In this document: positions 5,643-64,000 of the stretch, in pieces
Position numbering within the stretch: position 1 is the stretch's first letter
Layout: every line of letters starts with the position of its first letter
From: Imperialibacter sp. EC-SDR9
GTDB taxonomy: Bacteria > Bacteroidota > Bacteroidia > Cytophagales > Cyclobacteriaceae
DNA length: 64,000 nucleotides
Assembly: GCF_902498805.1 (NCBI RefSeq)
Contig: NZ_LR701591.1
Coordinates: forward strand, 1 to 64,000
Direction: 5' to 3'
The notes under the pieces: generated by a model
The model's input: only the letters and a program-made list of their open reading frames with translations
What the model was told of the DNA's origin: nothing
The model's database searches: none
Translations under genes and position numbers: made by a program

Positions 5643-5668
5643 GTTTTATTCATAAATACCAGACTAAA

Positions 5669-7716: not shown

Positions 7717-8811
7717 TTAGCGAAGAAGACTTTGGACTTCATATGCAGTTGGCACATCGTTGAAATGCCACTTACCTTTCACCACTCCATCTTTTACCAG
7801 TAGAAGCCCCGGATTAGACCTGATGATGGTTTTTAGAACCGTGGCATCGGAATAGTAGTAAGGAACTGCCAGTTGCACTTCGTGCCTAAAGGCTTCGAAG
7901 CTTGTGGGATCTGAGGCTGTCAGTGCCCAGGTGTCTACTTGTCCACTGAGCTGACTGATAAGTGTATTGATCTCGGAAAAGTGTTCTTTATTGACCTTTT
8001 CCACATTGTAGGTGATCACAAATAGCTTATTCCCAGTGAATGTTTCCTGCGTAAAGTCGCCATCATCGTTCCACACTGCATAGTCTGTGATTTTCGGTTG
8101 CACTTCGGGGTTAAGGATGACCATTTCCTTGAAGGTGTACGACTTATCGGTGGGGTACTGCTCCATTCGATGCTCTTTGCCATCCTTTTCCATCACGTAT
8201 TCATACTTCAGTTCGCCTGACGGCTCCATAAGCTCGGGCAGGTTGTTGCCTACTTTGTATGCTCTGAAATCGATGAAAGGAAGGTGACGGATGGCGTATA
8301 TGCCAATGAAAAGCGATAGAGCTGTTGCGCCTCCAATGATAATATCTTTGGTGCGACTTTCCTCAGACTCGCTGGCTACGAGGTCTCTTTTGAGGAATAA
8401 GAAAGCTATGAAAATGGTGAGTATGATATCTTTTATGAATGACTCCCACGGAGTAAGTTTGATAGCGTCGCCAAAGCAGCCACAGTCAGTCACTTTGTCA
8501 AAATAAGCTGAGTAGAAGGTGAGAAATGTAAAGAACACGATGATGACAAGCAGCAGCCAATAAGTGATTTTTACCCGGTAGTTAAGAAGGACGGCGATTC
8601 CCAGTACCACTTCCAACACGCAAAGAAACACCGCCAATGGTAAAGCAAGCGGAACGAATATTTCGAAGAATGAGGCAATGTCGGAAGCGAAAACCTCGAA
8701 GTACTCCTCAAGTTTGATGGCAGTGCCTACAGGGTCGTTGATTTTGATGGCACCAGAAAAAATAAAGAGACCACCGACGAAAAATCTTGATATTTGTAAT
8801 AGCCACTTCAT
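7717..8811 (-). CDS. DoxX family membrane protein (BT_3928 type)
   Basis: The N-terminal half (about 1-150) has the four-helix DoxX-type membrane domain with FSGAIKINDP and a Cys pair DCGCFGD near residue 125. The C-terminal 180 residues look like a thioredoxin-fold domain without a CxxC motif. This architecture matches Bacteroidota BT_3928-family proteins of unknown role, possibly linked to redox chemistry. I chose the ATG at 8811, giving 364 residues, because it overlaps the upstream DUF1599 stop as ATGA. An in-frame ATG at 8841 would add 10 residues. Confidence 0.85.
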   Translation of the reverse strand: MKWLLQISRFFVGGLFIFSGAIKINDPVGTAIKLEEYFEVFASDIASFFEIFVPLALPLAVFLCVLEVVLGIAVLLNYRVKITYWLLLVIIVFFTFLTFYSAYFDKVTDCGCFGDAIKLTPWESFIKDIILTIFIAFLFLKRDLVASESEESRTKDIIIGGATALSLFIGIYAIRHLPFIDFRAYKVGNNLPELMEPSGELKYEYVMEKDGKEHRMEQYPTDKSYTFKEMVILNPEVQPKITDYAVWNDDGDFTQETFTGNKLFVITYNVEKVNKEHFSEINTLISQLSGQVDTWALTASDPTSFEAFRHEVQLAVPYYYSDATVLKTIIRSNPGLLLVKDGVVKGKWHFNDVPTAYEVQSLLR

Positions 8812-9380
8812 TTGCTGAGATAGTTTAGTTTTATCAAACAAAACACTGAGTAATTGATCATGTCCTGATAGTTGGCTTTTATGCCTTCTGACACCAGTGT
8901 TTTTCCTTTGTTGTCTTCTATTTGTTTTACTCTCAATAACTTCATTAAAATAATGTCGGTCATCGAGCTCACCCTCATTTCCCGCCAGGCCTCACCATAG
9001 TCATGATTTTTATTGAGGAGCAATTCCATTGTCTCCCGGGCAATTTTATCATAGTGGGGTTCCAACGCTTCATACGGCAGTTCGAGCGCCGGGTTTTCAG
9101 CCAGCTCCATTTGAATCATAGCAATGATGCAATAGTTGATGATACCAATAAACTCTCCACTGATATTATCTTCCACCTTCTGCGTCCCCTTTTCCTGAAT
9201 AGAGCGGATTCTTTGCGCTTTGATGAATATTTGATCGGTGAGGGAAGAAAGCCGCAAAATGCGCCAGGCGGTGCCATAATCACGGGTCTTCTTTTCAAAT
9301 AATTCTTTACAAGCCTTTATTACTTGAGTATATTCGCCAACAGTTTTTTCTTCCAAAGGAGTATATCTTAATTGTCTCAA
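8808..9380 (-). CDS. DUF1599 domain protein (two repeats)
   Basis: This 190-residue soluble protein contains two copies of the same module. One lies at about 17-90 with KTRDYGTAWRILRLSSLTDQ, the other at about 108-185 with KNHDYGEAWREMRVSSMTDI. This is the DUF1599 (Nmad1-like) family, proposed from genome context elsewhere to act on nucleotides; no activity is established here. It is the first gene of the DUF1599-DoxX-aroK group and is divergent from folP, 22 bp away. Confidence 0.88.
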   Translation of the reverse strand: MRQLRYTPLEEKTVGEYTQVIKACKELFEKKTRDYGTAWRILRLSSLTDQIFIKAQRIRSIQEKGTQKVEDNISGEFIGIINYCIIAMIQMELAENPALELPYEALEPHYDKIARETMELLLNKNHDYGEAWREMRVSSMTDIILMKLLRVKQIEDNKGKTLVSEGIKANYQDMINYSVFCLIKLNYLSK

Positions 9381-9402
9381 CAGGGCGCTAAAAATAACGA
9401 AA

Positions 9403-10260
9403 TTGCTTTCAATTCATAAACCCTTTGATGCTAAAAGGAGTATCGAAGTTCGGGGACAAATCATATCGCTGGAATATCCATGCGTGATGGGCATTGTTAA
9501 CTTCACTCCCGACTCGTTTTATGATGGAGGGCGATTAAAGACTGACAGTGATATCCTGGCTCTCGCCGAAAGGCATTTAACCGACGGGGCCACTTTTCTT
9601 GATATAGGCGGTTATTCCTCTCGCCCTGATGCTGATCATATTAGTGAAGAAGAAGAGCAGCGGCGGGTTGGCCATGTAGTTGCTACTGTCATCCGACAGT
9701 TTCCCCAAGCTATTCTATCAGTGGATACCTTCAGAGCGTCAGTTGCCAAAGCAGCTCTTGATGCAGGTACTCAAATGATTAATGATATTTCGGGAGGAGA
9801 ACTGGACGCTGAAATGTTTTCATTAGTAGCGGAGCGGAATGTTCCTTACATTCTCATGCATATGAGGGGCACACCGCAGACGATGAAGCAGATGTCGGAT
9901 TATGAGGATGTTTTACAGGAAGTTTGTGACTACTTTAGTAGCAAGCTTAACTATTTACGTTCGAATGGCGTGAAGGACATTATCATCGACCCTGGTTTTG
10001 GGTTTGCAAAAGGGCCTTCTGTCGGCTTTGAGTTACTAGGAAAGATGTCGTTTCTCAAAGCATTGGGTGCTCCCGTTATGGTGGGGTTATCGAGGAAGTC
10101 GATGATTTATAAAACACTTGAAATAAATGCGGAAGAAGCGCTGAATGGCACAACAGCTTTGCATATGATTGCGTTAGAGAATGGGGCGAATATTCTGAGG
10201 GTACACGATACAAAAGAGGCTATTGAGGCCATAGAATTATACAGGAGGGTATATACTTGA
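9403..10260 (+). CDS. folP: Dihydropteroate synthase
   Basis: FolP condenses para-aminobenzoate with 6-hydroxymethyl-dihydropterin pyrophosphate in folate synthesis and is the sulfonamide target. The protein is 285 residues. Signatures visible include MGIVNFTPDSFYDGG (about 29-43), DIGGYSSRPDA (about 67-77), NDISGG (about 127) and IIDPGFGFAKG (about 189-199). It ends within the start codon of cdaA, a common Bacteroidota arrangement. Confidence 0.96.
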   Translation: MLSIHKPFDAKRSIEVRGQIISLEYPCVMGIVNFTPDSFYDGGRLKTDSDILALAERHLTDGATFLDIGGYSSRPDADHISEEEEQRRVGHVVATVIRQFPQAILSVDTFRASVAKAALDAGTQMINDISGGELDAEMFSLVAERNVPYILMHMRGTPQTMKQMSDYEDVLQEVCDYFSSKLNYLRSNGVKDIIIDPGFGFAKGPSVGFELLGKMSFLKALGAPVMVGLSRKSMIYKTLEINAEEALNGTTALHMIALENGANILRVHDTKEAIEAIELYRRVYT

Positions 10261-11144
10261 TACTAGCGTTCAAAATTGGGTTTTTAGAAATTGGATGGGT
10301 TGATGTCATCGACATAGGCTTTGTGAGCGTGCTCCTGTACCATGTGTACAAGCTCATGAGGGGGAGTGTGGCCATCAGGGTTTTTTTAGGCTTCTTGTTT
10401 CTCTACCTGGTTTACCTGGTGGTGAGGGCCGCCGAAATGGAGCTATTGTCGATCATTCTTGGTCAATTCATGGGAGTGGGTGTGCTGGCAGTCATTATCT
10501 TGTTTCAGCAGGAAATCAGGAAGTTTCTGCTGATTATCGGGCGTACCACCGCATTTGACAAGGAAAGTTTCTTCAAATCGTTTGGCGTCTTTTGGCGCAG
10601 CTCATCTGCTAGTAATAAATTTGACGTGACTCCTTTGGTAGAGGGGATGAAGAGCCTGGGTGGATCAAATACCGGCGCTCTAATGGTGGTTTCTAAGAAC
10701 ACCGAGCTCAAGTTTTATGCAGAATCCGGTGACAGAATGGACGCCATACTCTCCAAAAGGCTGCTTCTCTCTATATTCAACAAATATAGCCCACTGCATG
10801 ATGGCGCTGTAATCGTTTACGAAGGGAAGATAGTGGCCGCAAGGTGTATTTTGCCCGTAACCGAAAGAGACAATTTGCCAGCTCAGTTCGGGCTCAGGCA
10901 TCGGGCGGCAATAGGAATGTCGGAGCAGACAGACACGTTGATTCTGGTGGTTTCAGAGGAAACAGGTCAGCTTTCTGTCGTGAGGAACGGAAGAGTATTC
11001 TACAACCTGGCACCTCAGGACATTAGAAAGAAAATCAACGACTACCTTTCAGAAAACGAGGACGAGGAGCTGCTTTCTGAAGCAAATAAGGCAGCTGCCG
11101 CCGAAGCCGAAAAACCTCTAAAAAAGGAAAAGACCTCTGCTTAG
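10257..11144 (+). CDS. cdaA: Diadenylate cyclase CdaA
   Basis: The enzyme makes cyclic di-AMP from two ATP, a second messenger for potassium and cell-wall homeostasis. Three hydrophobic segments cover about residues 5-85. The DAC domain follows with the catalytic motif HDGA (PLHDGAVIVY, about 180) and RHRAA (about 218-222). A charged Glu/Lys tail follows. The start must be TTG at 10257, overlapping the folP stop as TTGA. The next ATG (residue 35) would remove the first membrane helix. Length is 295 residues. Confidence 0.93.
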   Translation: MILAFKIGFLEIGWVDVIDIGFVSVLLYHVYKLMRGSVAIRVFLGFLFLYLVYLVVRAAEMELLSIILGQFMGVGVLAVIILFQQEIRKFLLIIGRTTAFDKESFFKSFGVFWRSSSASNKFDVTPLVEGMKSLGGSNTGALMVVSKNTELKFYAESGDRMDAILSKRLLLSIFNKYSPLHDGAVIVYEGKIVAARCILPVTERDNLPAQFGLRHRAAIGMSEQTDTLILVVSEETGQLSVVRNGRVFYNLAPQDIRKKINDYLSENEDEELLSEANKAAAAEAEKPLKKEKTSA

Positions 11145-12427
11145 TGATGGTCGGCATTTACTGGCTTTTCTAGCCGCACGCCGAACGAATACTCCAGCAG
11201 TTTGCGTACGGTGAGCCCCTGAAACAGGATAGATAACACAACAACTGTATAAGTCATTGTGACAATGATGTCTTTTCCCTCAAACTCTGGGAGCGACAGC
11301 GACAATGCAATAGGTATGCCTCCCCGGAGCCCGCCCCAGGTCATGATTGTAACGGAGTGTTTTTCGAAATGATGTTGTTTGAAAACAGACATGAGCTTTA
11401 TGGGGATTCCTACACTGATAAACCGGGCTACCAAAATCAACGTAAAAGCAAAAAAGCCTGCTGCGAAATAGTCAAGCCGGATGGTAATGACCAACATTTC
11501 GAGCCCGATCAACACAAAAAGCATAGCATTTAGAGACTCCTCCATCAAACTCCAAAACTTAAACACGTAGTCGCTGGTGACGCTGGTGATATAGTTTCCC
11601 CGTCCTTCGTTTCCTATAATCAGCCCGGCCACTACTGCAGCCTGCTTGGCAGAGATGTGGAGTATTGTTGCAATTTGTGCTCCTGTTAGTACCAGAGCCA
11701 GCGTAACCAGGATCTCCAGTTCCGATTGATCGTTGTCGATGTACTTAAGCAGCCGGTAGCCAACAAAACCAAGGATAAGCCCAAGTATGATTCCACCCCC
11801 AACATCGAGGGAAAATATAAAGCCGACATCCCAGAAGCTGATTCTGTGGTCTTCGCCGGTATGAGCAAGGTCGAGCAACGTAAGGGCCAGCACCACAGCC
11901 ACGCCATCATTGAAAAGTGACTCGCCGGAGACTTGAATGGCCAGTCTTTTGGATAAGTTATACTTCTTGATGGTCGATGTGAGAGCGATCGGATCAGTGG
12001 GCGATATCAGGGCACCAAAGACCAGGCAATAAATCAGGTCAAGATGGATGCCGGAAAACTTCAGAATGTAGAAAATGCCAAGGCCCACGATGACCGTGGA
12101 AATGAAAATACTGGCCGTGGCTAATATTAACACAGGCCATTTCTCCTGAGCAAGTTTTTTGAAGTCGATTTGGAGTGCTCCTGCAAAGAGCATGAAAATG
12201 AGCACTACCTGATAGAGGACATCGGAATAGTCGTAGTTTTCCATGACACGCTCGGTGCCTATGATGAAATCGGGGAACAGCCAGCCAGCCACTAAAATGC
12301 AAAAGGACAGGCAAAGCGCCATTAACATCAGCCCAATGGAAGAGGGCAATTTGATGAAGTATGTGTTTACGTATATAAAGATGCCTGCCAGGCAGACAAA
12401 AATTGCGACTATATCAAGTATATGCAT
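11141..12427 (-). CDS. Cation:proton antiporter (CPA1/NhaP type)
   Basis: The 428-residue integral membrane protein has about 12 predicted helices. It shows the CPA1 features GALISPTDPIAL (about 133-144) and FNDGVAVVLAL (about 170-180, with the ND pair in the ion-binding core). A glycine-rich helix WGGLRGGIPIALSLS lies at about 370. It exchanges protons for sodium or potassium across the inner membrane for pH and salt balance. It converges on cdaA with a 4-bp overlap. Confidence 0.92.
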   Translation of the reverse strand: MHILDIVAIFVCLAGIFIYVNTYFIKLPSSIGLMLMALCLSFCILVAGWLFPDFIIGTERVMENYDYSDVLYQVVLIFMLFAGALQIDFKKLAQEKWPVLILATASIFISTVIVGLGIFYILKFSGIHLDLIYCLVFGALISPTDPIALTSTIKKYNLSKRLAIQVSGESLFNDGVAVVLALTLLDLAHTGEDHRISFWDVGFIFSLDVGGGIILGLILGFVGYRLLKYIDNDQSELEILVTLALVLTGAQIATILHISAKQAAVVAGLIIGNEGRGNYITSVTSDYVFKFWSLMEESLNAMLFVLIGLEMLVITIRLDYFAAGFFAFTLILVARFISVGIPIKLMSVFKQHHFEKHSVTIMTWGGLRGGIPIALSLSLPEFEGKDIIVTMTYTVVVLSILFQGLTVRKLLEYSFGVRLEKPVNADHH

Positions 12428-53346: not shown

Positions 53347-55278
53347 ATGTATGCAGTTGGTATAAGGGTGGTCGGGCTGGTAGCCTGTGTCATCCTTTTT
53401 TTGTTTAATGCAAAAGGTCAGGAGGATGCTGCTGATTCTGTCCGCAAGGGTGAGATCTTGGCGCCAGTGGAGATTAGTGACTCATGGCTTCACAGCTATG
53501 CAGTGGGAGGCCATTCGGAACAACTCGACTCGATTGCCCTTCAACGGCAGTCGTCTGCATCCTTAGGTAAGCTACTTCAGGCGCAGCAGGGCATTTACCT
53601 GAAGGAGTATGGCCCCGGTATGCTGAGCTCTATTAGCCTCAGGGGCACCTCCGCCAGCCAAACCTCCCTGCTTTGGAACGGTCTTCCCATCAACTTCCCC
53701 TCCCTGGGGCAGGCCGATTTTTCACTGATTCCCAATTTCTTTATTGACAAAGCGGAGGTTTTTTACGGAGGGGTAAGTTCGCTGGCAGGGTCTGGCGCTA
53801 TTGGAGGTGCGGTGGCTGTCAGCGATAAGGTTGACAAAAACCTCCGAAGCATAGGGTTCACCCAGGAAGTTGGAAGCTTCGGCACAAATTTTTCTGGATT
53901 GAAAGCCAGGGTGGCGGGGGAGAAGGCTGGCATTTCTCTCGCTGGCTTTTATAAGGAATCCGATAATGACTACACCTATCGTAATCTGGCAAAAGCCGGG
54001 CAGCCGATTGAAAGACAATCTCATGGCGCTTACATGGGCAAAGGCCTGAAGGCGGCTGCCTTCTGGAACCCCTGGTCAAAGGGTGTTTTTGACTTCGAAG
54101 GTTGGCTGACTCACTATAATAGAGAGATTATTCCGCCCTACACCGTTGCTTCAGCCGGAGATACCCAAATTGATCAGTCGCTGCGACTGTCGTTGGGTTA
54201 TATGCACCGCATCCAGCCTTTGTTGAAATGGGAATCACGGGTTGGGAGAATCTACGATTTTATCAAATTCAACGGCCTTGCATCCGGCACCACTCAGTAT
54301 ATGTGGAATAATAGCATTGAATGGATGCCGTTTTCCCACCTTCAGCTCCGGGTTGGTGGTTTAATCAATCATATGCTAGCTGACGTGCCGGAATACGGTG
54401 GCGATTTGAGTGAAAACCGATCCAACGTCTATTTAATGCTCAATTGGTTTCCCTCAACCAGGTGGACGCTCAACGCCAAAGTTCGCCAGGAAATTGTTGC
54501 TGGCACATGGAATCCAGTCGCTCCGTCACTGGGAGCTGACGTTCTGGTTTTACGATCAGAGGCAGTTTCCGTCAATTGGCGATCGCAGCTCTCCAGAAGC
54601 TACCGGGTGCCCACACTCAACGACCGCTATTGGAGCCCTGGTGGCAACCTAAACCTGAAGCCAGAACAAGGTTGGAATGCAGAGTCTGGACTCGATTATT
54701 CTGTCAAACGGGGAAATCATGTGCTGGAAGCATCTGTCACTGGCTTTGCGCACTGGATACAAGATTGGATTCTTTGGCTCCCGCAGGTGGAGGGCTACTG
54801 GTCGCCAGTAAATGTGAGGAATGTGTTTTCCCGTGGCGGTGAGCTATCTGTTGGACATAAATGGAGCGTGGGAACGTGGCTGTTAAGCAATGACATCAAC
54901 TACAAACTAACAGTATCGCAGATCCGGGCAGGCTATTCTGGTGACGATAGCAATATCGGTAATCAACTGCCTTATGTGCCACTGCATCAGGGCGCCTGGA
55001 GCTTTGGGTTGCAAACGGAGCCATGGCATTTTAATTCCCAGGTTTCATTCTATGGCAGCAGGTATACGCTCGTTGATAACGACATCAACTTGAACGCCTA
55101 TACGCTCTGGAATCTGGAGACTGGCAGGCAAATTCAGGCTGGGAAGTCCCTTTTTGCGCTGTCGATCAAGGTCGACAATGTGTTGGGCACCCGGTACGAG
55201 AACCTGCAATACCGACCAATGCCGGGTCGCTCATTCTCCATTCAATTGAATTACACTTTAAATCAAGATAAAAAATGA
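53347..55278 (+). CDS. btuB: TonB-dependent cobalamin receptor
   Basis: The 643-residue outer-membrane receptor has a signal peptide (about 1-24, ending NAKGQ), a plug domain (about 55-160, with LQAQQGIYLKEYGPGMLSSI and SLRGTSASQTSLLWNGLPI) and a 22-strand barrel ending IQLNYTLNQDKK. The TonB box is not obvious. The cobalamin riboswitch upstream and the BtuG-like lipoprotein overlapping its end make B12 the likely ligand. It is small for the family, like other Bacteroidota BtuB proteins. Confidence 0.92.
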   Translation: MYAVGIRVVGLVACVILFLFNAKGQEDAADSVRKGEILAPVEISDSWLHSYAVGGHSEQLDSIALQRQSSASLGKLLQAQQGIYLKEYGPGMLSSISLRGTSASQTSLLWNGLPINFPSLGQADFSLIPNFFIDKAEVFYGGVSSLAGSGAIGGAVAVSDKVDKNLRSIGFTQEVGSFGTNFSGLKARVAGEKAGISLAGFYKESDNDYTYRNLAKAGQPIERQSHGAYMGKGLKAAAFWNPWSKGVFDFEGWLTHYNREIIPPYTVASAGDTQIDQSLRLSLGYMHRIQPLLKWESRVGRIYDFIKFNGLASGTTQYMWNNSIEWMPFSHLQLRVGGLINHMLADVPEYGGDLSENRSNVYLMLNWFPSTRWTLNAKVRQEIVAGTWNPVAPSLGADVLVLRSEAVSVNWRSQLSRSYRVPTLNDRYWSPGGNLNLKPEQGWNAESGLDYSVKRGNHVLEASVTGFAHWIQDWILWLPQVEGYWSPVNVRNVFSRGGELSVGHKWSVGTWLLSNDINYKLTVSQIRAGYSGDDSNIGNQLPYVPLHQGAWSFGLQTEPWHFNSQVSFYGSRYTLVDNDINLNAYTLWNLETGRQIQAGKSLFALSIKVDNVLGTRYENLQYRPMPGRSFSIQLNYTLNQDKK

Positions 55279-56309
55279 AAAAGCTAGCATTATGGAGTTT
55301 AGTGGCCGCAGTTTTCCTAACCAGCTGTGGTGGTGACGACGAAGGCGATCCGAAAAACAGTGTGGGATCCGTTTTTGTGGTCAATGAGGGGAATTTTAAT
55401 CAAACGAATGGAAGCATTACTTCCTATGATCCGGAAACCGAAGAAGTCTCTTCCCTTGTTTTTCAATCGGCCAACGGTCGGCCATTGGGTGACGTGGTGC
55501 AATCCTTGTTCATTGATGCTGACGAGGTGGGCTACGTAGTAGTGAATAACAGCAAAAAAGTTGAAGTCGTGAACGCTGACTTTGTTTCAACAGCCACCAT
55601 TGAGGCCAACCTGGCCAATCCAAGGTATCTGTTGAGAGTCAACGATCAGCTCTTTGTCAGCAATTGGGGCACTTTCGATGAGAACTATGCACTCGATCAG
55701 TCGTACGTACTCATTCTTGACGCTGCAACCTTTGAAAAGGAGGGGGCAGTAAACACGGAGGATGGAACCGAAAACCTGGCCTATGCTGATGGCTATGTGT
55801 ATGCATCCAATAGTTTCGGGAACACCGTGTCGGTAATTAAAACCAGCACCGGAGAACTTGAAACAACCCTTGAGGTGGGATATTCTCCGGGAGAAATGGT
55901 GGTGGATGCAGACGGGGCCGTTTGGTTGATCTGTGGAGGAAGCTATCAGGAAAACGATGGAGCAATTTACAAGCTTGGCGCATCCGCAGCTACCAAAGAG
56001 GTCGACTTGGAGGTTAATCCTTCTACACGATTGTCAATTGATAAAGAGCAGGGTGTGTTGTATTACATAGCAGGCACATCGGTTGGAAGCTATGAAACTG
56101 GGCAAAAAGTGCTTAAAAAAGAGTTTATTACGATTGACGATGCTGTTGGCTTTTATGGACTAGGCTATAGCGAGGCCGAGGATGTTATTTATATAGCCGA
56201 TGCCAAGGGCTTTCAGGGTAAAGGTACTGTTTACAGGTATTCTGCTGACGGAACAGCAATATCGAAGTTTGAAGCGGGGGTGGCGCCAAACGGATTCGTA
56301 TTTAAATAG
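55275..56309 (+). CDS. btuG: BtuG-like beta-propeller lipoprotein (YncE/DUF5074)
   Basis: The 344-residue precursor has a lipobox (FLTSC, about Cys18) and a seven-bladed-propeller repeat pattern: GSVFVVNEGNFNQTNGSI (about 31-48), PRYLLRVNDQLFVSNWG, NLAYADGYVYASNSFGNTVS, and VGYSPGEMVVDADGAVWLIC. In Bacteroides, BtuG of this type sits on BtuB and binds B12 with very high affinity. The start overlaps the btuB stop by 4 bp, supporting the pairing. Confidence 0.83.
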   Translation: MKKLALWSLVAAVFLTSCGGDDEGDPKNSVGSVFVVNEGNFNQTNGSITSYDPETEEVSSLVFQSANGRPLGDVVQSLFIDADEVGYVVVNNSKKVEVVNADFVSTATIEANLANPRYLLRVNDQLFVSNWGTFDENYALDQSYVLILDAATFEKEGAVNTEDGTENLAYADGYVYASNSFGNTVSVIKTSTGELETTLEVGYSPGEMVVDADGAVWLICGGSYQENDGAIYKLGASAATKEVDLEVNPSTRLSIDKEQGVLYYIAGTSVGSYETGQKVLKKEFITIDDAVGFYGLGYSEAEDVIYIADAKGFQGKGTVYRYSADGTAISKFEAGVAPNGFVFK

Positions 56310-56369
56310 AACCATCACTTGCAACCCTTCAATTTGCCCGCAGTCTTTACTCAAAATGAACTGATAATT

Positions 56370-57050
56370 ATGAGAAAGATAGGAGTACTTGTACTTGGGT
56401 TGCTAATCGCCGGTCAGGTGTGGGCTGGAGAGGAAACAAGAGAGTTGTCTTCGTTCAGCAGCCTCGATATTGGTGGTGCTTTTAAAGTGACACTGAAAAA
56501 AACCGGCAAGCACAGGGTATTCATTGATGCAGATGACAACGTGATAGACAGAATCCGAACGGAAGTTGTCGGTAGCACCCTGAAAGTGTATATCAAGGAC
56601 AATAATTTCAGGTCGAACGGGCCCATGAATCTGACCATTGAGTTTTCGAGCATTAATGGCATGGATTTAAGTGGTGCTTCCACAGTTGTATGTGATGATG
56701 TCATCACCGCCTCAACATTCGAATTGGAAGTGAGTGGAGCGGGTTCTACAAGGCTAATCGTAGAAGCTGACAGGCTAAGGGCCGACATGACAGGTGCTGG
56801 CACGCTTACACTAAGGGGGAAGGCGAGGGAGCAAGTCATTGATATAACCGGCGCAGGTAGTTACAATGCGGAGGACTTCGACTGCGACTACACCGAGGTG
56901 GAGTCTTCAGGGGCTGGCACAGCAAGGGTAGTAGCCAACAAAGAGCTTAGGGCTGAATGCAGTGGAGCAGGCTCGGTTCGCTACAAGGGCAATCCGCAGA
57001 AAGTTTATGCTGACTCAAACGGCGCAGGCTCTGTCAAAAGAATGAATTAA
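56370..57050 (+). CDS. Head-GIN (DUF2807) exported protein
   Basis: The 226-residue precursor has a signal peptide (ending QVWAG). The mature protein is a parallel beta-helix-like GIN domain with repeating G-A/S-G turns: SGAGSTRL, TGAGTLTL, SGAGTARV, NGAGSV. It opens with the TRELSSFSSLDIGGAFKVTL motif of DUF2807. Function is unknown. I start at ATG 56370, which begins the signal peptide. It lies 60 bp past the BtuG-like gene. Confidence 0.88.
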   Translation: MRKIGVLVLGLLIAGQVWAGEETRELSSFSSLDIGGAFKVTLKKTGKHRVFIDADDNVIDRIRTEVVGSTLKVYIKDNNFRSNGPMNLTIEFSSINGMDLSGASTVVCDDVITASTFELEVSGAGSTRLIVEADRLRADMTGAGTLTLRGKAREQVIDITGAGSYNAEDFDCDYTEVESSGAGTARVVANKELRAECSGAGSVRYKGNPQKVYADSNGAGSVKRMN

Positions 57051-57056
57051 TAGAGA

Positions 57057-57085
57057 AGGGGTGTTTTCACCCTTTCTTTTTTTTG
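57057..57085 (+). terminator. Terminator after the head-GIN gene
   Basis: AAGGGGTG (57057-57064) pairs with CACCCTTT (57069-57076) with one wobble, then CTTTTTTTTT. It overlaps the last codons of the convergent meaB gene. Confidence 0.75.
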
Positions 57086-58080
57086 TAGAGGTCAAACAGT
57101 TGATGTGCTGCACTTACAGGGTTCAGCTCTCTAGTTTCCACTTTTGCGGCAAGGTCTTTGATTTCCTCTTTTACCAGACTATTAAATTCCTGTTTCAAAA
57201 GCCCATCCAGTTTCTGGTGCATCCATTGCAGGTTTTGCTGCGATCGCTGATGCGCCAGGTAGCCATTCGCAATCATCTTTTCTTTGAACGACTCAATCAA
57301 AGTCCATAACTCGCTAATTCCCTCGCCAAGTAAAGAAGAGCAAGTCGTTACTTGAGTAACCCAGCCGGAAGGGGGCAGCGAGAAGTAGTGGGTCACTTGT
57401 TTGAGTTCCTGAAGCGTCTTCCTGACGGCTGGCATGTTGTCGCCGTCTGCCTTGTTGATTACAATGGCATCAGCCATCTCCATGATGCCCTTTTTTATCC
57501 CCTGCAGATCATCGCCTGCACCAGCGATAGTTAACAGCAGGAAGAAGTCGCACATGTCTCGCACCAGGGTCTCTGATTGGCCAACGCCCACGGTCTCTAT
57601 CAGAATGACATCGAACCCGGCCGCTTCGCACAATAACATGGCTTCACGTGTCTGATCTGCCACGCCCCCCAGAGTTGAGCCCGTAGGAGTGGGCCTTATA
57701 TAGGCATTTGGGTTGACGGCCAGCTTGTTCATCCTGGTTTTGTCGCCCAGGATGCTACCTTTGGTCTGCTTGCTTGACGGATCAACTGCCAATACGGCCA
57801 CCTTTTTTCCTACGCTGACCAGGTATTCGCCAAAGGCTTCTATAAAGGTGCTTTTCCCAACTCCCGGTATGCCTGATACACCAATTCTTGTTGCCTTGCC
57901 CGTTTTGCTTAACAATCTGTCTATCAGTTGCTCAGCAAGCGCTCTGTCAGATGGTAGTTTGCTTTCCACGAGCGTAATACCCCTGGCCAGAGCCACCCTG
58001 TCGCTCCTGATTATTCCGCTAATCAGTTCCTCTGGTGTTGGCCTTTTTGGTATATTCGTTGACATCGAAGAAAAAGTCAC
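57067..58080 (-). CDS. meaB: MeaB GTPase, methylmalonyl-CoA mutase chaperone
   Basis: MeaB gates adenosylcobalamin loading of, and protects, the B12-dependent methylmalonyl-CoA mutase. The 337-residue P-loop GTPase has Walker A GIPGVGKST (about 66-74), the family switch VDPSSKQTKGSILGDKTRM (about 98-116), ETVGVGQSE (about 164-172) and NKADGDN (about 209-215). The mutase genes are not in the window. Its place beside B12 uptake genes is functionally consistent. ATG 58065 is an alternative start. Confidence 0.95.
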   Translation of the reverse strand: MTFSSMSTNIPKRPTPEELISGIIRSDRVALARGITLVESKLPSDRALAEQLIDRLLSKTGKATRIGVSGIPGVGKSTFIEAFGEYLVSVGKKVAVLAVDPSSKQTKGSILGDKTRMNKLAVNPNAYIRPTPTGSTLGGVADQTREAMLLCEAAGFDVILIETVGVGQSETLVRDMCDFFLLLTIAGAGDDLQGIKKGIMEMADAIVINKADGDNMPAVRKTLQELKQVTHYFSLPPSGWVTQVTTCSSLLGEGISELWTLIESFKEKMIANGYLAHQRSQQNLQWMHQKLDGLLKQEFNSLVKEEIKDLAAKVETRELNPVSAAHQLFDLYKKKKG

Positions 58081-58251: not shown

Positions 58252-59502
58252 ATGAAAGCAAACAGAAGAGAATTTTGGCTGGACTCGATTTTTGGAACAG
58301 CCTTCATATTCTTACTGATGTGGACGTTTTATTCCGTAACCGCATTTAAGGTCTTTGACTTATTTGATCCGATTGGAGACGCTCTCGGCGACGTAGAGCT
58401 CACTGATGTGGTATTCTCCCAGCTAAGGGAGCCGGCAGTTCCTGACGACAGGATTGTGCTGGTCAACCTGGGCAGGGTAAACAGGGCAGATATTGGGTAT
58501 ATGATTGATATTGTCAATCAATATGAACCAAAGGTAATTGGCCTCGATACCTATTTCAGAACGCCCAAAGATTCTGCTGTCGATGCCATTATGGAGGATG
58601 CTTTTTCGAGGGTTGATAACCTGGTAATTGGTAGCATTCTTCAGAACTTTAATGAAGAGAAGCTGGAATTTGATTCTCTGGGGAAATCTCTTCCAAGATT
58701 CACTCAGCATGCTGAGACGGGTTTTGTTAATTTTATAACAGATGCCCAAACTCAGGAAGAGTTGAAAATGACCCGGGAGTTCACTCCCAAGGAGATGGTG
58801 GCAGGGCAACAAGAACTGGCATTTGCTGTAAAGCTGGCTCAGTATTTGGAACCTGAAAAGGTAGACAGGTTGTTGAAAAGAGGCAACGAGCGAGAGACGA
58901 TTAATTACCGAGGCAATGTGATGGACTTCGGTGCGTCGGTGTATGGTACGATGTTTTTCGCACTGGACGTTAATCAAGTTTTTGATCAGAACTTCGATCC
59001 ATCTCTGATCAAGGATAAAATTGTGATCTTCTGCTTCTTAGGTGAGTATCTTGGTGATAGACTGACAATAGAAGACAAGTACTATTCGCCGATTAACTCG
59101 CAGTTTGCAGGAAGATCCTACCCGGATATGTTTGGGGGAGTTGTGCATGCCAACATTGTGGCCATGATTCTCAATGAGGATTACATTGATGCCATGGATG
59201 ATGCAACCGGCGCTATAATTGGTGTGCTGTTGTGTTTAATCAATGTAGCGGCTTTTTCTTACATATACAGAGTGTATTCCAAATGGTACGACGGTGCCAC
59301 TAAATTGATACAGCTGGTGGAAGTTTTGGGCATCAGCTTTATGAATGTTTATGTATTGGACAAGTTCAATTATAAACCGGAGTTAACCATTGGCATGGTA
59401 GCAATAGCCCTTGCCGGTGATTCTCTGGAAGTATATTACAGCGTGGTGAAGAATTCAGTCACCGGGCTTTTTAAAAGTAGAAAAAGAAAAATTAAATTGT
59501 AA
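58252..59502 (+). CDS. Orphan CHASE2-domain membrane sensor
   Basis: The 416-residue protein has one N-terminal helix (about 13-35), an extracytoplasmic CHASE2 domain (about 40-310) with PDDRIVLVNLGRVNRADIGY, YEPKVIGLDTYFRTPKDS and IKDKIVIFCFLGEYLGD, and three C-terminal helices (about 318-402). CHASE2 normally feeds a kinase, cyclase or GGDEF domain, but here the chain ends about 10 residues after the last helix (KSRKRKIKL). Output must therefore pass to a separate protein, or the domain serves another purpose. The next gene is 19 bp downstream. Confidence 0.88.
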   Translation: MKANRREFWLDSIFGTAFIFLLMWTFYSVTAFKVFDLFDPIGDALGDVELTDVVFSQLREPAVPDDRIVLVNLGRVNRADIGYMIDIVNQYEPKVIGLDTYFRTPKDSAVDAIMEDAFSRVDNLVIGSILQNFNEEKLEFDSLGKSLPRFTQHAETGFVNFITDAQTQEELKMTREFTPKEMVAGQQELAFAVKLAQYLEPEKVDRLLKRGNERETINYRGNVMDFGASVYGTMFFALDVNQVFDQNFDPSLIKDKIVIFCFLGEYLGDRLTIEDKYYSPINSQFAGRSYPDMFGGVVHANIVAMILNEDYIDAMDDATGAIIGVLLCLINVAAFSYIYRVYSKWYDGATKLIQLVEVLGISFMNVYVLDKFNYKPELTIGMVAIALAGDSLEVYYSVVKNSVTGLFKSRKRKIKL

Positions 59503-59521
59503 AACATTAAAAATTAGACCT

Positions 59522-60451
59522 ATGAAAATGAGAACAATTCTTTTGACGTTCTTGGTATTGCTGAGTTTTTTGAGCAGCAATGTATTGGCTCAGGGTTATG
59601 AGTTTCGTGTATTGGCTAATAAAGGTGAAAACCAAGTAAAAAAGGCTGGTGCAAGTCAGGCAGAGACCTTGAAAACTGGCGCAACGCTTGCGAAAGGTGA
59701 TCAAATCATCGCTGCAAATGGCGCTTACATCGGACTGGTGCACAGCAGTGGTAAAACCACCGAGATAAGAACTCCTGGCACTGTAAAGATCGACGATTTG
59801 TCGGCGAAAATTTCTGCCACTAGTTCTACAACCGCCAGCCGTTATGCTAACTACATAGCTGCTAAAATGAACGAAAGTGACGGTGGCGGAAACTACCGGT
59901 CAAACATGAAAGCGACTGGTGCTGTTGAAAGAGCTTTAACGTCTGCTATCAACGTAATGCTTCCTAATTCTGTTGACTTTTATGGTGACAACGCTATTGT
60001 TCGCTGGAAAGCTATAGGTGAAGATAACACAACGTACATAGTAACTGTGAAGAACATTTTTGATGAGGAAGTAGCCAAAATCGAAACTGATCAGACAGCT
60101 TATGAGCTTGATTTTACCAACCCTAAGCTTGCACAGGAGAGACTAGTGATACTTAATGTAAAAGTGAAAGGTGATGAAGACATGAAGTCGTCTGACTACG
60201 GTATCAAACGCCTTTCAAACACTGAGTCTGCTAAGGTGAACGAAAACATCAAAGGACTGAAGAGTGAAGTAAACGAAGAAACGCCGCTGAATAAGATCAT
60301 TTATGCTTCTTTCTTCGAAGAAAACAACCTTGTGCTTGATGCGCTTACCAAGTATGAAGAGGCTATCGAGATGTCTCCCGAAGTACAGGACTTCCAGGAC
60401 ATGTATCAGAGCTTCCTTGTAAAGAACGGCCTTGTTGCCACTGCTAACTAA
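59522..60451 (+). CDS. Secreted FecR-like/helical-repeat protein
   Basis: The 309-residue precursor has a signal peptide (1-24, ending VLAQ). Residues 30-90 resemble a FecR-type domain (NQVKKAGASQAETLKTGATL, then KTTEIRTPGTVKIDDL). Residues 150-225 look like an Ig-type strand domain (NAIVRWKAIGEDNTTYIVTV). The C-terminal 60 residues are helical and TPR-like (LDALTKYEEAIEMSPEVQDF). In layout it recalls the DUF928-type proteins near CHAT genes in cyanobacteria, though I cannot claim homology. It follows the CHASE2 gene by 19 bp. Confidence 0.7.
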   Translation: MKMRTILLTFLVLLSFLSSNVLAQGYEFRVLANKGENQVKKAGASQAETLKTGATLAKGDQIIAANGAYIGLVHSSGKTTEIRTPGTVKIDDLSAKISATSSTTASRYANYIAAKMNESDGGGNYRSNMKATGAVERALTSAINVMLPNSVDFYGDNAIVRWKAIGEDNTTYIVTVKNIFDEEVAKIETDQTAYELDFTNPKLAQERLVILNVKVKGDEDMKSSDYGIKRLSNTESAKVNENIKGLKSEVNEETPLNKIIYASFFEENNLVLDALTKYEEAIEMSPEVQDFQDMYQSFLVKNGLVATAN

Positions 60452-60780
60452 GGCGAAGTGTAAAAAAGATAAAAAAAGGGGCGCAAGCCCTTTTTTTTAT
60501 GCCCATATTCTGACAAAATGAAAGCGGCTGGATTGAGGCAAGAGAGGCGAACAATAGAAACGGAATTATTAGGGCAATGGTCATGTTAAGCGTCCAGTCC
60601 CAGAAATTCTGAACTGGTTCCAGTTGATCGACCTGATTGCAAAACAACTCCTTAGCGACCAGCCCCCTTCCGGCTAGCGAGACACGTCCAAAAATCTACA
60701 GGTAGCTGTTCATCAGACTGCCACTGTTGTCACTCTAAAGCTATGGGTTGTTGAGCCCCACCAGAGACCAGGCTAACAAC
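60452..60780. other. Intergenic region between secreted protein and CHAT gene
   Basis: Apart from terminators at its ends I see no gene. A minus-strand frame at 60444-60647 encodes a hydrophobic stretch but crosses a terminator and has no promoter or ribosome-site support, so I do not call it. Confidence 0.5.
60471..60498. terminator. Bidirectional terminator
   Basis: GGGC (60479-60482), a GCAA tetraloop and GCCC (60487-60490) are flanked by seven A on the left and eight T on the right. It ends the CHASE2-operon transcript and could also act on the minus strand. Confidence 0.85.
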
Positions 60781-60810
60781 AAAAAAAAGAGGCTGCCTTT
60801 CGACAGTCTC
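60781..60810 (-). terminator. Terminator of the CHAT gene
   Basis: On the minus strand GAGACTGTC (60110 bases into the hairpin, 60102-60110 of the +60,000 block) pairs with GGCAGCCTC around a GAAA loop, with one mismatch and one wobble, and is followed by eight T at 60781-60788. On the plus strand the arms lie at 60789-60797 and 60802-60810. Confidence 0.75.
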
Positions 60811-60836
60811 CCTCAAGTTCGATCATGTAATAGAGA

Positions 60837-63800
60837 TCAATCCAATCCTATCATTACAAAAGGCCCCCAATAGATTGGGTCACGATACTCATTTCTTATC
60901 TCTTTCTTAGCATCAATGAAAGCCCTGCGCTTGTCGCCGGTAGTGATCCATTTCTGGTAAAACTTCACCATGAGCTGCTGTGTGGCTTCATCAGATACTT
61001 TGAACAAACTCATGATGATTGTTTTGGCTCCCGCAACCAGAAATGCTCGTTGCAATCCATACACGCCTTCTCCGGCTTCCATTTCACCTAAGCCCGTTTC
61101 GCAAGCGCTCAACACCACCAGGTCAGTTTGATCCAGGTTGAGGTTCATGGCTTCATAGGCAGTTAGGATACCACTCTGGCTATTGTAGTTGTAGGCGCTT
61201 TCGTTCAAAATATCGCCAGCACCTGCCATGAGCAGTCCGGAACGCAGCAAAGGGTTGTCATATGCTTTCGATTCGTTGAGTCCGGCAAATATGTTATTTT
61301 CCTCGATCGCTGGCTGGAAGAAACCGTGTGTGGCAATGTGAAATACTTTTGGGCTTTTCATCAGCTTAACCTGATCCTCACCCGCCTTCATCTCAAGATA
61401 GTCCTGGGTTTTCCAGCCATTGTCGTTAAGCAGCTTTTTGAGTTCAACAACTTCTTCATGCGTGCCAGGAAGTCGCTGTACTTCACTCATGCCAATACTT
61501 TTGGTTAAGTTGTCGTTGCCGGAAGATGCTCCTTCCGATTTTACATAAAAAATAGGATCCCCAAACATCAACGCCAGGTTCTCAGCGGGTGCCTGTGCCT
61601 TCTTTTTCTTATTTCTGTTTACAAGATCCCTGGTATTACTTACCAGGATTATATTGGAATTATCGAGTACGTATTTGCCATCGCCAGTTGGTATAGCCTC
61701 CAAATTAATTTGATTATAAACACCGTCGGCCGAAAGGTAGATCGTAGAGGTTTGCCCAACAGCTTCAACGATAGGCTTCCAGAACTGATCATAGGAATAC
61801 TCATCCTCAATTTTAAATTTAATACTGTTTCGATACAGCTTCATGTACCTGCCTTCGAGGGCTGCGCCGTTTCGCAGCAGCACCAGCTGTGGTTTGCTGC
61901 GCTTTTCATTGTCGACATAGATGACAGCGTACATTACCGAATCAGTAAAATCATGGTCGAAGTAACGGAACCTCACAATTTCAACCCCCTTTTCATTCTC
62001 GCCCAGGGCTGCTTTTACATCCTGCCACGTGACAACATTGTTGTCGACACCTTCTCCAAATACTTCGGACTTCAAGCTGAGCTGTTTCTCCAGCGCTTCC
62101 ATTTCTTGTACCAGTTGAGCCGGATTCACATTGTTCTCCAGCAGCTGATCGTTTGACATGGAAAGGGCATTGGTTAGCTGTGCTTTTTTGGCTATCCAGC
62201 TGCTGTACATATTTATCAACGTGCTGTCTCCGCTGGAAAGAATACGGGTTCTGATTTTTATTGAGGTATTCAGCAGGAGTGCCTTGGTGAGCAAAGCGTT
62301 ATTGTAAATGTCACCTATCAGGTCCTCTTTCTTGTCGATCCGTGTAAGCGCCAATGTGTTGTAGAACTCGTAATCGGACTTGATGGTGTTCCAAAATTTG
62401 GCTTTTTCTCTTTCACTTAGAGCGGGGAAGTAGGTCTTTATAAACTCCTGATAGTTGGCCAGTGTCTCTTCAATAGTATTCTGGGCCTTTCTAATGTCCC
62501 CATTCATGTAGTAAGTTTTAGCAAGCTTCGACAGCACTTTCACATACTCCGGGTGAGAAGTGGAGAAAAATTTGGCGTACGTCTTTAGGGCATCCTGGTA
62601 AAAATTGTCTGCCCTGTCGTATTGCCTCTTTTGGTACTGGATGTCACCTTTCAGCGTGTTGACTACAGCAGCATTAACGTTATTCCGCTTTCCTATTCGG
62701 TCTTTCCAGATCGTCCACGCCTCTTCGAGATACTGTAGGGAAATGTCATATTCGCCCGCATAAATACTCACAGTAGCCAAATCTTTCAATACTTCAGCAT
62801 AGAGTGGGTTTTTACTTCCCAGCTTGGTTCCAACGATTTTTTCTGCTTCAACAAGCAGGGCTTGTTGCTGCTTGAAACTGGCACCATCGTAAAATTTGAT
62901 CATTCCCAGCTGGGCAAGCGAACGGCCTACATCTACATGGCTTCGCCCAAATTGTTTTTCCTGATTGGTAATCGCCTGAGAAATAAATTGCTCCGCCTTT
63001 TCATAATCTCCAATCGTTGTGTAGAGTCGGGATAAGGTTATTAAGCTGCTGGCTAGCTTGGAGGAAGAGGCTGGAAATACAGCTGTTGCTATGTTAAGAG
63101 ATCTTCTTGCGAACGACTCCGCATCGGTATACTCGCCGGCAGCCAGCTTCAATTGTGCCTTCAAAACCAGCGGGCGCAAAAGGTGCCTGCTTGTGGCACC
63201 AAACTGTTTTTCTGTATTCGTCAGGTATTTATCGACCAAATCTGTTGCATCGCTGTATCTGCCCAAATGATAGTACAGTTCGGCAAGGTCTTCCGTGTTT
63301 TGTCCGGCAGAGCCCAGTCGGTTCAGTCCACTCTTAATTTTGATTCGTTCTGACTCGAAAAGAAGGTCTTCCGCCTCGTCGTAGAGGCCTTGAATAACCA
63401 TTAATCTCGCTTTGGTAGTCAATAGGTTGGTATAGTGAAGTGTTTCCTCAAGGGAGGAAGGTTTGGCGAGAATATTTGTTGCTTCCTGAATGTTTTTTTC
63501 TGCTTTCTCATATTCTCCAATATTCATTTGCAGAGACGCAATCTTATTCAACTCAACGCCATAGTTTACATCCTTGTTGTCGTATTTCACACGGGATACA
63601 TTCAGTGCTTTGTCAAGTGTTTTTGATGCATTACTGAAATCGTCATTTTCCTCATAAAACTGCGCCAAATGGTTGAGGGTGTTCACATATTCAACATGGC
63701 CTTGAGAAAACTCCTTTTCAATCACTCCATGGAAGCTCTCATCATATATTTTCTTTGCCTCAGCAAACTTGTCCGAGTATTCGACCAGGTAGTTGGCTTG

Positions 63801-64000
63801 CAGCACTCTCGACAAGTGATACTCTGGGGCATCGGCACCGAGCATGTCCTTTTCAATTTTAAGGATATCAAGAAGGTACTTTTCCGCATTTTCCGCATTA
63901 TTGTTTAGCTGGGCAGCACGGTAGGCAAATTCAAGTATCCTTCGTCTCTCAGGGTGAATTTCAGGGTAAAGGCTACCGTAAGCTTTGGAGGCAGCATCTT
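60837..64000 (-). CDS. TPR-CHAT caspase-like protease, 5' end outside window
   Basis: At least 1053 residues are visible and the frame is open to the window edge. Roughly the first 530 visible residues are tandem TPR-type helical repeats (for example DYEKAEQFISQAITNQEKQFG, one per about 40 residues). The C-terminal 350 residues are a CHAT domain, a separase/caspase-like cysteine protease fold. It has the catalytic His in HIATHGFF (163 residues from the end) and Cys in VLSACETG (88 from the end). Such proteins are usually cytoplasmic proteases released by a signal on the TPRs. Here the neighbours are a CHASE2 sensor and a secreted protein, convergent with it. Confidence 0.9.
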   Translation of the reverse strand, partial: DAASKAYGSLYPEIHPERRRILEFAYRAAQLNNNAENAEKYLLDILKIEKDMLGADAPEYHLSRVLQANYLVEYSDKFAEAKKIYDESFHGVIEKEFSQGHVEYVNTLNHLAQFYEENDDFSNASKTLDKALNVSRVKYDNKDVNYGVELNKIASLQMNIGEYEKAEKNIQEATNILAKPSSLEETLHYTNLLTTKARLMVIQGLYDEAEDLLFESERIKIKSGLNRLGSAGQNTEDLAELYYHLGRYSDATDLVDKYLTNTEKQFGATSRHLLRPLVLKAQLKLAAGEYTDAESFARRSLNIATAVFPASSSKLASSLITLSRLYTTIGDYEKAEQFISQAITNQEKQFGRSHVDVGRSLAQLGMIKFYDGASFKQQQALLVEAEKIVGTKLGSKNPLYAEVLKDLATVSIYAGEYDISLQYLEEAWTIWKDRIGKRNNVNAAVVNTLKGDIQYQKRQYDRADNFYQDALKTYAKFFSTSHPEYVKVLSKLAKTYYMNGDIRKAQNTIEETLANYQEFIKTYFPALSEREKAKFWNTIKSDYEFYNTLALTRIDKKEDLIGDIYNNALLTKALLLNTSIKIRTRILSSGDSTLINMYSSWIAKKAQLTNALSMSNDQLLENNVNPAQLVQEMEALEKQLSLKSEVFGEGVDNNVVTWQDVKAALGENEKGVEIVRFRYFDHDFTDSVMYAVIYVDNEKRSKPQLVLLRNGAALEGRYMKLYRNSIKFKIEDEYSYDQFWKPIVEAVGQTSTIYLSADGVYNQINLEAIPTGDGKYVLDNSNIILVSNTRDLVNRNKKKKAQAPAENLALMFGDPIFYVKSEGASSGNDNLTKSIGMSEVQRLPGTHEEVVELKKLLNDNGWKTQDYLEMKAGEDQVKLMKSPKVFHIATHGFFQPAIEENNIFAGLNESKAYDNPLLRSGLLMAGAGDILNESAYNYNSQSGILTAYEAMNLNLDQTDLVVLSACETGLGEMEAGEGVYGLQRAFLVAGAKTIIMSLFKVSDEATQQLMVKFYQKWITTGDKRRAFIDAKKEIRNEYRDPIYWGPFVMIGLD

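What the first reader, a model, noticed from the sequence alone, without database searches (positions are those of the whole stretch)
58252..64000. Candidate CHASE2 / secreted FecR-like / TPR-CHAT protease module
A CHASE2 sensor without any output domain, a secreted FecR-like protein with a TPR-like end, and a large TPR-CHAT caspase-like protease are neighbours. CHASE2 and CHAT genes also cluster in cyanobacteria, which argues against chance. I suggest the sensor reads an envelope signal and triggers the protease, possibly as an undescribed stress- or defence-like system. I see no gasdermin or other known target in the window.
Basis: partly seen in the sequence, partly recalled or inferred. 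Interest (0 to 1): 0.8.

Follow-up and report, generated by a model that had tools for sequence, protein, structure and literature searches.

The report
Sensor-coupled exported caspase-like protease
A membrane sensor with no signalling domain of its own, a small exported adaptor protein and a large exported caspase-like protease tend to be gained, lost and evolve together across a bacterial order, so they probably form one envelope signalling system whose output is a protein cut made outside the cytoplasm.

Summary
The three genes are real. CHASE2 (58252-59502 +) has no output domain. The 'FecR-like' protein (59522-60451 +) is MtxA-like: signal peptide, beta part, Fn3-like and TPR-like end; Pfam FecR does not match it. 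The CHAT gene (-) runs beyond the window to 65060: 1,407 aa, signal peptide, His/Cys dyad present.

Adjacency here proves little. The genes converge with a terminator-like hairpin between them, CHAT lies 27 bp behind mutB, and 10 of 44 family genomes with both show them within 10 kb.

Co-occurrence is the evidence. Family: both 44, CHASE2 only 6, CHAT only 1, neither 47 (looser cut 46/4/8/40). Order: 101/2/1/88. On an rpoB tree of 130 genomes gains and losses are correlated (LR 77; largest of 80 null simulations 9.1; neighbour MeaB, family only, 0.4). Evolutionary rates covary too. One genome has CHAT-CHASE2-MtxA-like head to tail; one without the long CHAT has an exported WD40-caspase (C14) upstream of CHASE2; one cyanobacterial protein fuses CHAT to CHASE2.

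Best reading: an envelope sensor controlling an exported protease. Coupling is well supported; direction, ligand, substrate and any defence role are unshown. New variant of the known CHASE2/FecR-type pairing.

The parts
58252..59502 (+). CHASE2 protein, 416 aa, four predicted membrane helices, no output domain
   Evidence: Pfam PF05226; AlphaFold2 model pLDDT 92.0; related gene in 50 of 98 family genomes and a PF05226 match in 103 of 192 order genomes
59522..60451 (+). MtxA-like exported protein, 309 aa (FecR-like beta part, Fn3-like part, TPR-like end)
   Evidence: 19 bp after CHASE2; relative directly downstream of CHASE2 in 41 of 42 loci rows (one row, L094, duplicates L055); Foldseek best match MtxA 4z29; PF22121 MtxA_C in 7 of 50 members, not in this one
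60837..64000 (-). long TPR-CHAT protein, exported; gene continues beyond the window to contig position 65060 (1,407 aa in all)
   Evidence: Pfam PF12770; full ORF; His1245 and Cys1320 invariant in 58 of 58 distinct relatives
60471..60497 (-). terminator-like hairpin between the convergent genes (A-run before and T-run after the stem)
   Evidence: 10-pair stem; a consensus match only (3 sites found, 0.7 expected in shuffles)

Best explanation
An envelope signalling module with a proteolytic output. The CHASE2 protein sits in the inner membrane with its sensing domain outside the cytoplasm. The MtxA-like protein is its exported partner, as in other CHASE2 systems. In place of a fused cyclase or kinase, the output is an exported TPR-CHAT cysteine protease: a change read by CHASE2/MtxA-like recruits or releases the protease, probably through the TPR-like end of the MtxA-like protein and the long TPR array of the CHAT protein, and it cuts an envelope substrate. 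Shown here: the genes, export signals, dyad, conserved CHASE2/MtxA-like pairing, correlated presence and correlated rates. Inferred: physical contact, direction of signal, protease activity. Unknown: ligand and substrate.
For: Pairing: MtxA-like gene beside CHASE2 in 41 of 42 family locus rows and 26 of 30 order loci. Co-occurrence with the long CHAT: family 44/6/1/47, Fisher 4e-20; order 101/2/1/88. On an rpoB tree of 130 genomes with about 20 and 19 parsimony changes, dependent against independent model LR 77.1; 12 bootstrap trees 71.9-86.4; 80 null simulations at most 9.1; family tips alone 38.4, the other 49 tips alone 41.1; MeaB control 0.4. Rate covariation given rpoB in 27 genomes: CHASE2/MtxA-like 0.49, CHASE2/CHAT 0.43, MtxA-like/CHAT 0.51 (permutation p 0.0004, 0.006, 0.0008); with MeaB 0.03, -0.02, 0.11. 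Arrangement: CHAT-CHASE2-MtxA-like on one strand, gaps 65 and 3 bp, in G442; convergent as in the window in G490. Replacement: G343 lacks the long CHAT but has an exported WD40-Peptidase_C14 protein (E 6.8e-14, H and C present) upstream of CHASE2-MtxA-like on the same strand. Fusion: Brasilonema CHAT (E 1.5e-9) + CHASE2 (E 6.7e-67) in one protein. Dyad invariant in 58 of 58.
Against: No operon in this genome; CHAT sits in the mutase gene row here and behind mutB in 21 of 30 family loci. Six CHASE2-positive family genomes lack a long CHAT at my cut. G402 has CHASE2 and the MtxA-like gene, no long CHAT, and no protease among five neighbours scanned. My family cut (E 1e-200) was chosen after seeing the list; at E 1e-80 the table is 46/4/8/40 and LR falls to 28.9 in the family and 59.9 overall. 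A basal clade (G012, G025, G071, G091) has a divergent 1,350-1,390 aa CHAT and no CHASE2. A second exported CHAT group also tracks CHASE2 (32 of 50 against 0 of 48; LR 29.7; at a loose cut 37/13/9/39, LR 9.4, p 0.05), so the link may be to several exported CHATs or to lifestyle. No non-CHAT accessory gene of similar frequency was tested. In one genome (G438) a separate SpoIIE phosphatase gene follows CHASE2, which fits an inward signal. No activity was tested.
Confidence: 0.55

Rival explanations
1. The three belong together, but the signal runs inward: the exported CHAT protease processes a ligand or partner, the MtxA-like protein relays it, and CHASE2 passes it through the membrane helices to a separately encoded cytoplasmic partner such as a kinase or SpoIIE-type phosphatase.
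For: Known CHASE2 systems signal inward: CHASE2 cyclases in S. meliloti (PMC13001267, passages), CHASE2 histidine kinase with a FecR protein in Burkholderia (PMC5192318, passages), FecR gene 5 bp before a CHASE2-cyclase in Phyllobacterium. In G438 a SpoIIE gene follows CHASE2. Co-occurrence says nothing about direction.
Against: No cytoplasmic partner recurs beside CHASE2 in the 42 family rows; the only genes next to it in most rows are MtxA-like and MeaB, and MeaB shows no covariation. The CHASE2 model ends with the last helix.
Confidence: 0.22
2. Indirect association: clades with a given lifestyle keep both the CHASE2/MtxA-like pair and a rich set of exported CHAT genes, and the window shows old synteny at the methylmalonyl-CoA mutase locus.
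For: CHAT is behind mutB in 21 of 30 family loci and CHASE2 beside MeaB in 34 of 42 rows. A second CHAT group tracks CHASE2 as well. Lifestyle was not measured.
Against: Losses coincide within genera and sister pairs (G009/G090 in one genus) in genomes of ordinary size; two separate parts of the tree both show it; rates covary; one head-to-tail cluster outside the mut locus; caspase-fold fusion and replacement.
Confidence: 0.18
3. A defence or self-killing system: envelope damage or phage adsorption is sensed and the protease triggers death.
For: CHAT and caspase domains are effectors in bacterial conflict systems, and one described caspase protein class carries CHASE2 (PMC8195603, one passage). 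A trypsin- or caspase-type effector logic is described in PMC10907252 (passages).
Against: No PADLOC match at E 0.01 for the three proteins. The unit is stable across about 13 order families rather than patchy and mobile, and the protease is exported. No target gene was looked for beyond the neighbourhood.
Confidence: 0.07

Closest known systems
MtxA plus CHASE2-adenylate cyclase gene cluster of magnetotactic bacteria (PMC4439547; section 3 and passages seen)
   Same: MtxA is 313 aa: signal peptide, beta region, Fn3-like fold 142-226, TPR 227-313, and its gene is followed by a CHASE2 gene. The window protein has the same order of parts in 309 aa and Foldseek ranks 4z29 first (E 8.1e-6).
   Different: There the CHASE2 gene has similarity to adenylate cyclase; here CHASE2 ends after the last membrane helix. 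In the window MtxA-like follows CHASE2; mtxA precedes it. No CHAT is mentioned in what I saw. Sequence identity in the Foldseek match is 14%.
LysM-FecR plus CHASE2-histidine kinase operon of Burkholderia (PMC5192318; passages seen)
   Same: Exported FecR-type protein encoded beside a CHASE2 membrane protein.
   Different: Output is a fused kinase and a response regulator; the FecR protein carries LysM.
Cyanobacterial caspase-CHASE2 fusions: metacaspase-CHASE2 of Trichodesmium (PMC3501461, PMC2853523; passages) and CHAT-CHASE2 of Brasilonema
   Same: A caspase-fold domain tied to CHASE2 with one helix before and three after it.
   Different: There the protease is fused and expected in the cytoplasm (the Brasilonema protein begins without a signal sequence); here it is separate and exported.
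Craspase TPR-CHAT (Csx29; PMC9729208 and others, search listing only)
   Same: TPR array plus CHAT caspase-like protease controlled by a partner protein.
   Different: RNA-guided Cas7-11 partner; the window protein has a signal peptide and no PADLOC match.

Membership tests
CHASE2 (PF05226) | Match above the curated score | tested here: met
   62.1 bits against cut-off 26.3
CHASE2 receptor with fused output | Cytoplasmic cyclase, kinase or other output after the last membrane helix | tested here: not met
   Only CHASE2 in Pfam; model ends in the fourth helix
FecR (PF04773) | Match above the curated score | tested here: not met
   No Pfam family at E 0.1 for the window protein; FecR not among the 25 families listed for 50 relatives. 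A weak LapA retention-module hit, 20.5 bits against cut-off 50
MtxA family | Order of parts: signal peptide, beta region, Fn3-like fold, TPR | tested here: met
   Model secondary structure; Foldseek first match 4z29, TM-score 0.52 by target length, rmsd 7.0 over two domains
MtxA family | Sequence match to PF22121 MtxA_C | tested here: inconclusive
   7 of 50 relatives at E 0.1, best 0.0049; not the window protein
CHAT protease (PF12770) | Match above the curated score | tested here: met
   186.2 bits against 24
CHAT protease (PF12770) | His/Cys catalytic dyad | tested here: met
   THG and SACET residues invariant in 58 of 58 distinct long CHATs; that these form the dyad is recalled knowledge of the family
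CHAT protease (PF12770) | Peptidase activity | not testable with these tools
   No assay
Known anti-phage defence systems (PADLOC-DB 2.0.0) | Model match | tested here: not met
   None for the three proteins at E 0.01
Caspase-gasdermin systems | Gasdermin gene nearby | not tested
   No gasdermin search was run

The most novel reading that the evidence does not exclude
A transmembrane sensor whose output is a caspase-family protease working in the periplasm: an envelope counterpart of caspase signalling, with interchangeable protease folds (TPR-CHAT in most of the order, WD40-C14 caspase in one lineage, fused CHAT or C14 in cyanobacteria), used to remodel or destroy the envelope on cue.
Probability: 0.3. 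Interest if true: 0.9.

Novelty: new variant of a known kind. Interest (0 to 1): 0.72.

Why it matters
CHASE2 ligands and the role of exported CHAT proteins are both open questions (Zhulin-type CHASE2 domains are described as having unknown signals in PMC5192318). If the coupling is right, a sensor, an adaptor and a protease that genome annotation lists apart can be tested as one system, and caspase-family proteolysis would act outside the bacterial cytoplasm. I found no paper joining CHASE2 and CHAT in searches of 5.39 million open papers (the two hits are a metacaspase paper where 'Chat' is an author name, and a conference collection not opened).

Tried and rejected
Rejected: (1) operon in the window: genes converge with a hairpin between. 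(2) Adjacency as proof: mostly synteny at the mutase locus. (3) FecR family membership. (4) Known defence system. (5) MeaB as a fourth part: beside CHASE2 in 34 of 42 rows but no covariation. (6) 'longCHAT' label on an 853 aa neighbour in G436: Pfam shows OmpA-TPR, not CHAT. (7) The 987 aa neighbour in G435 is not labelled CHAT; its start looks like a SusC-type receptor, not scanned.

Led nowhere: genome-contig scan with a single protein gave one locus; CHASE2 fold search gave no match at E 0.001; PDB sequence search none for CHASE2; plasmid searches for CHASE2 found Bernardetia with MeaB-CHASE2-hypothetical, then an IS. NsrA paper not held.

Limits: single-gene tree; 17 of the 98 family genomes left out of it (7 with full rpoB not fetched, all 'neither'; 6 partial and 4 without rpoB: G087, G008, G069, G044, G062 both, G051, G046 CHASE2 only, G022, G021, G089 neither), and 49 further tips taken from the order search (48 outside the family) plus none else. 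The family and order sets share some family genomes. The 'drop incomplete genomes' run (LR 73.1) dropped 8 tips: six under 90% complete and two at 93%. Signal peptides were judged by a crude pattern (53 of 58; four of the other five look like signals by eye, one is cut at a contig end), not by a trained predictor. Only the top few candidates per genome were scored by the genome search.

Full report
WHAT IS THERE. The window is G000:C58:1-64000 of a 6.8 Mb genome. CHASE2 (58252-59502 +, 416 aa) matches PF05226 and nothing else. The MtxA-like gene starts 19 bp later (59522-60451 +). The CHAT gene is on the other strand, 60837-65060 on the contig, 1,407 aa. MeaB (57067-58080 -, PF03308) precedes CHASE2 divergently. 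Upstream of CHAT, 27 bp away, is a methylmalonyl-CoA mutase large subunit gene and then a second mutase gene (PF01642). A terminator-like hairpin lies between the convergent genes.

THE SECOND PROTEIN. It has no Pfam match. Its AlphaFold2 model from 50 relatives (pLDDT 89.8) has a signal helix, a beta part (28-89), helices, a second beta part (150-230) and a helical end (233-301). Foldseek's first PDB match is the C-terminal part of MtxA (4z29, E 8.1e-6); PF22121 MtxA_C is found weakly in 7 of 50 relatives. MtxA is described with the same order of parts and a CHASE2 gene after it (PMC4439547, section 3 and passages). CHASE2 with a FecR-type exported neighbour is also described in Burkholderia (PMC5192318, passages) and seen in a Phyllobacterium plasmid, FecR then CHASE2-cyclase. 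So the pair CHASE2 + FecR/MtxA-type exported protein is a known kind.

THE PAIR IN RELATIVES. Of 98 family genomes 50 have a CHASE2 relative. In 42 locus rows (one, L094, repeats L055) the MtxA-like gene follows CHASE2 in 41; L065, a second CHASE2 copy, is the exception. MeaB is beside it in 34. A long CHAT or fragment lies in 10 rows of the same fetched stretches, plus a fragment in L066. In 30 order loci with 1.5 kb flanks the MtxA-like gene is present in 26.

THE LONG CHAT. All 28 aligned family orthologues are full length, mean column identity 57%. In 58 distinct long CHATs from family and order, His1245 and Cys1320 are invariant, and 53 of 58 pass a crude signal-peptide pattern. The own genome has 11 CHAT genes, and all 11 pass the same pattern. 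In 21 of 30 family loci the long CHAT follows mutB.

CO-OCCURRENCE. Family (98 genomes; CHASE2 at E 1e-3, long CHAT at E 1e-200): both 44, CHASE2 only 6 (G019, G046, G051, G066, G077, G081), CHAT only 1 (G005), neither 47; Fisher 4e-20. G051 has a CHAT fragment beside its MtxA-like gene at a contig end, and some positives are themselves fragments. With the tool's listed cut of E 1e-80 the table is 46/4/8/40, Fisher 9e-15. Any CHAT domain: 86 of 98, all 50 CHASE2-positive and 36 of 48 negative genomes. MeaB: 90 of 98, no association (p 0.48). Order (192 genomes, some of them family members): CHASE2 103, long-CHAT profile at E 1e-100 102, both 101, CHASE2 only G402 and G343, CHAT only G512, neither 88.

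TREE TEST. rpoB from 130 genomes. Parsimony changes: CHASE2 20, CHAT 19. Dependent against independent two-state model: LR 77.1. Twelve bootstrap trees: 71.9 to 86.4. Eighty simulations under independence: mean 1.5, maximum 9.1. Stricter CHAT cut 69.2; eight less complete tips dropped 73.1; basal clade of four counted as CHAT-positive 64.5; loose cut 59.9. Family tips alone (81): 38.4, loose cut 28.9; the other 49 tips: 41.1; controls on the 81 tips, CHASE2 with MeaB 0.4 and long CHAT with MeaB 1.9. MeaB is near universal, so it is a weak control on frequency.

A RESULT THAT BLURS SPECIFICITY. I meant a second CHAT group of about 900 aa as a control. It is found in 32 of 50 CHASE2-positive and 0 of 48 negative genomes, LR 29.7. 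At the loose E 1e-60 cut, which takes in other CHATs, it is 37/13/9/39 and LR 9.4, p 0.05. So either the module governs more than one exported CHAT, or clades with CHASE2 are rich in such genes.

RATES. In 27 genomes with all five genes, tree distances given rpoB correlate: CHASE2/MtxA-like 0.49, CHASE2/CHAT 0.43, MtxA-like/CHAT 0.51; each with MeaB 0.03, -0.02, 0.11 and not significant. MeaB is as close on the chromosome to CHASE2 as the MtxA-like gene, so linkage alone does not explain it.

ARRANGEMENTS. Family: 10 of 44 within 10 kb, 17 of 44 on one contig. Another family of the order: G442 has CHAT (5246-9406), CHASE2 (9472-10761), MtxA-like (10765-11712), one strand, gaps 65 and 3 bp; G490 has the window's convergent order. 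G445 has a CHAT two genes from CHASE2.

REPLACEMENT AND FUSION. G343 has CHASE2 and a divergent MtxA-like gene but no long CHAT. On the same strand upstream is a 1,023 aa exported protein with WD40 repeats and Peptidase_C14 (E 6.8e-14), with AGHG and DACYSG motifs, 274 bp from the CHASE2 ORF. No similar protein was found among the other ORFs of the fetched CHASE2 loci. This is one case. The other CHASE2-only order genome, G402, showed no protease among five neighbours scanned. In Brasilonema one 775 aa protein holds CHAT then CHASE2, in a row with DUF1822, DUF928 and TPS-secretion genes. The literature has a metacaspase-CHASE2 protein in Trichodesmium (PMC3501461, PMC2853523, passages) and a caspase class with CHASE2 ends (PMC8195603, one passage).

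HOW IT MOST LIKELY WORKS. CHASE2 without output and two exported partners point to an output outside the cytoplasm. I propose that CHASE2 and the MtxA-like protein sense an envelope state and control the TPR-CHAT protease. Coupling I put at about 0.8; this direction at 0.55. Ligand, contact, activity and substrate are not shown. The main rivals are an inward signal through CHASE2 and an indirect lifestyle association.

NOVELTY. The sensor pair is known; an exported caspase-fold protease as its coupled partner was not found in my searches. I therefore file it as a new variant of a known kind.

Noticed in passing
window 57067-58080 and 58252: CHASE2 lies divergent to MeaB in 34 of 42 family rows and in several other order families, yet MeaB shows no covariation with it. 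The reason for this stable neighbourhood is unexplained.
   Followed up: partly
window 53347-57050: TonB-dependent receptor, DUF5074 protein and a DUF2807 protein precede MeaB; the first two recur in 20 and 17 of 42 CHASE2 loci, which with MeaB and the mutase suggests a B12 uptake and use region.
   Followed up: no
own genome, L014-L023: Eleven CHAT genes, all with signal-peptide-like starts: exported TPR-CHAT proteins are a multigene family here.
   Followed up: partly
G022, contig C190 and others: One family genome without CHASE2 has 21 CHAT matches, many in a row on one contig.
   Followed up: no
L095-L124: In other classes of the phylum the CHASE2 protein is about 730 aa, and in 15 of 30 loci the gene just upstream ends in phenylalanine like an outer-membrane barrel. 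This recalls NsrA, the barrel needed by CHASE2 cyclases in S. meliloti (PMC13001267). Neither the barrel nor the C-terminal part was tested.
   Followed up: no
L363:7813-14141: In G438 CHASE2 is followed by a SpoIIE phosphatase gene and a T9SS-tailed subtilase instead of a recognised MtxA-like gene.
   Followed up: partly
L141: In G080 an extra MtxA-like gene lies beside the long CHAT although the CHASE2 copy is on another contig.
   Followed up: no
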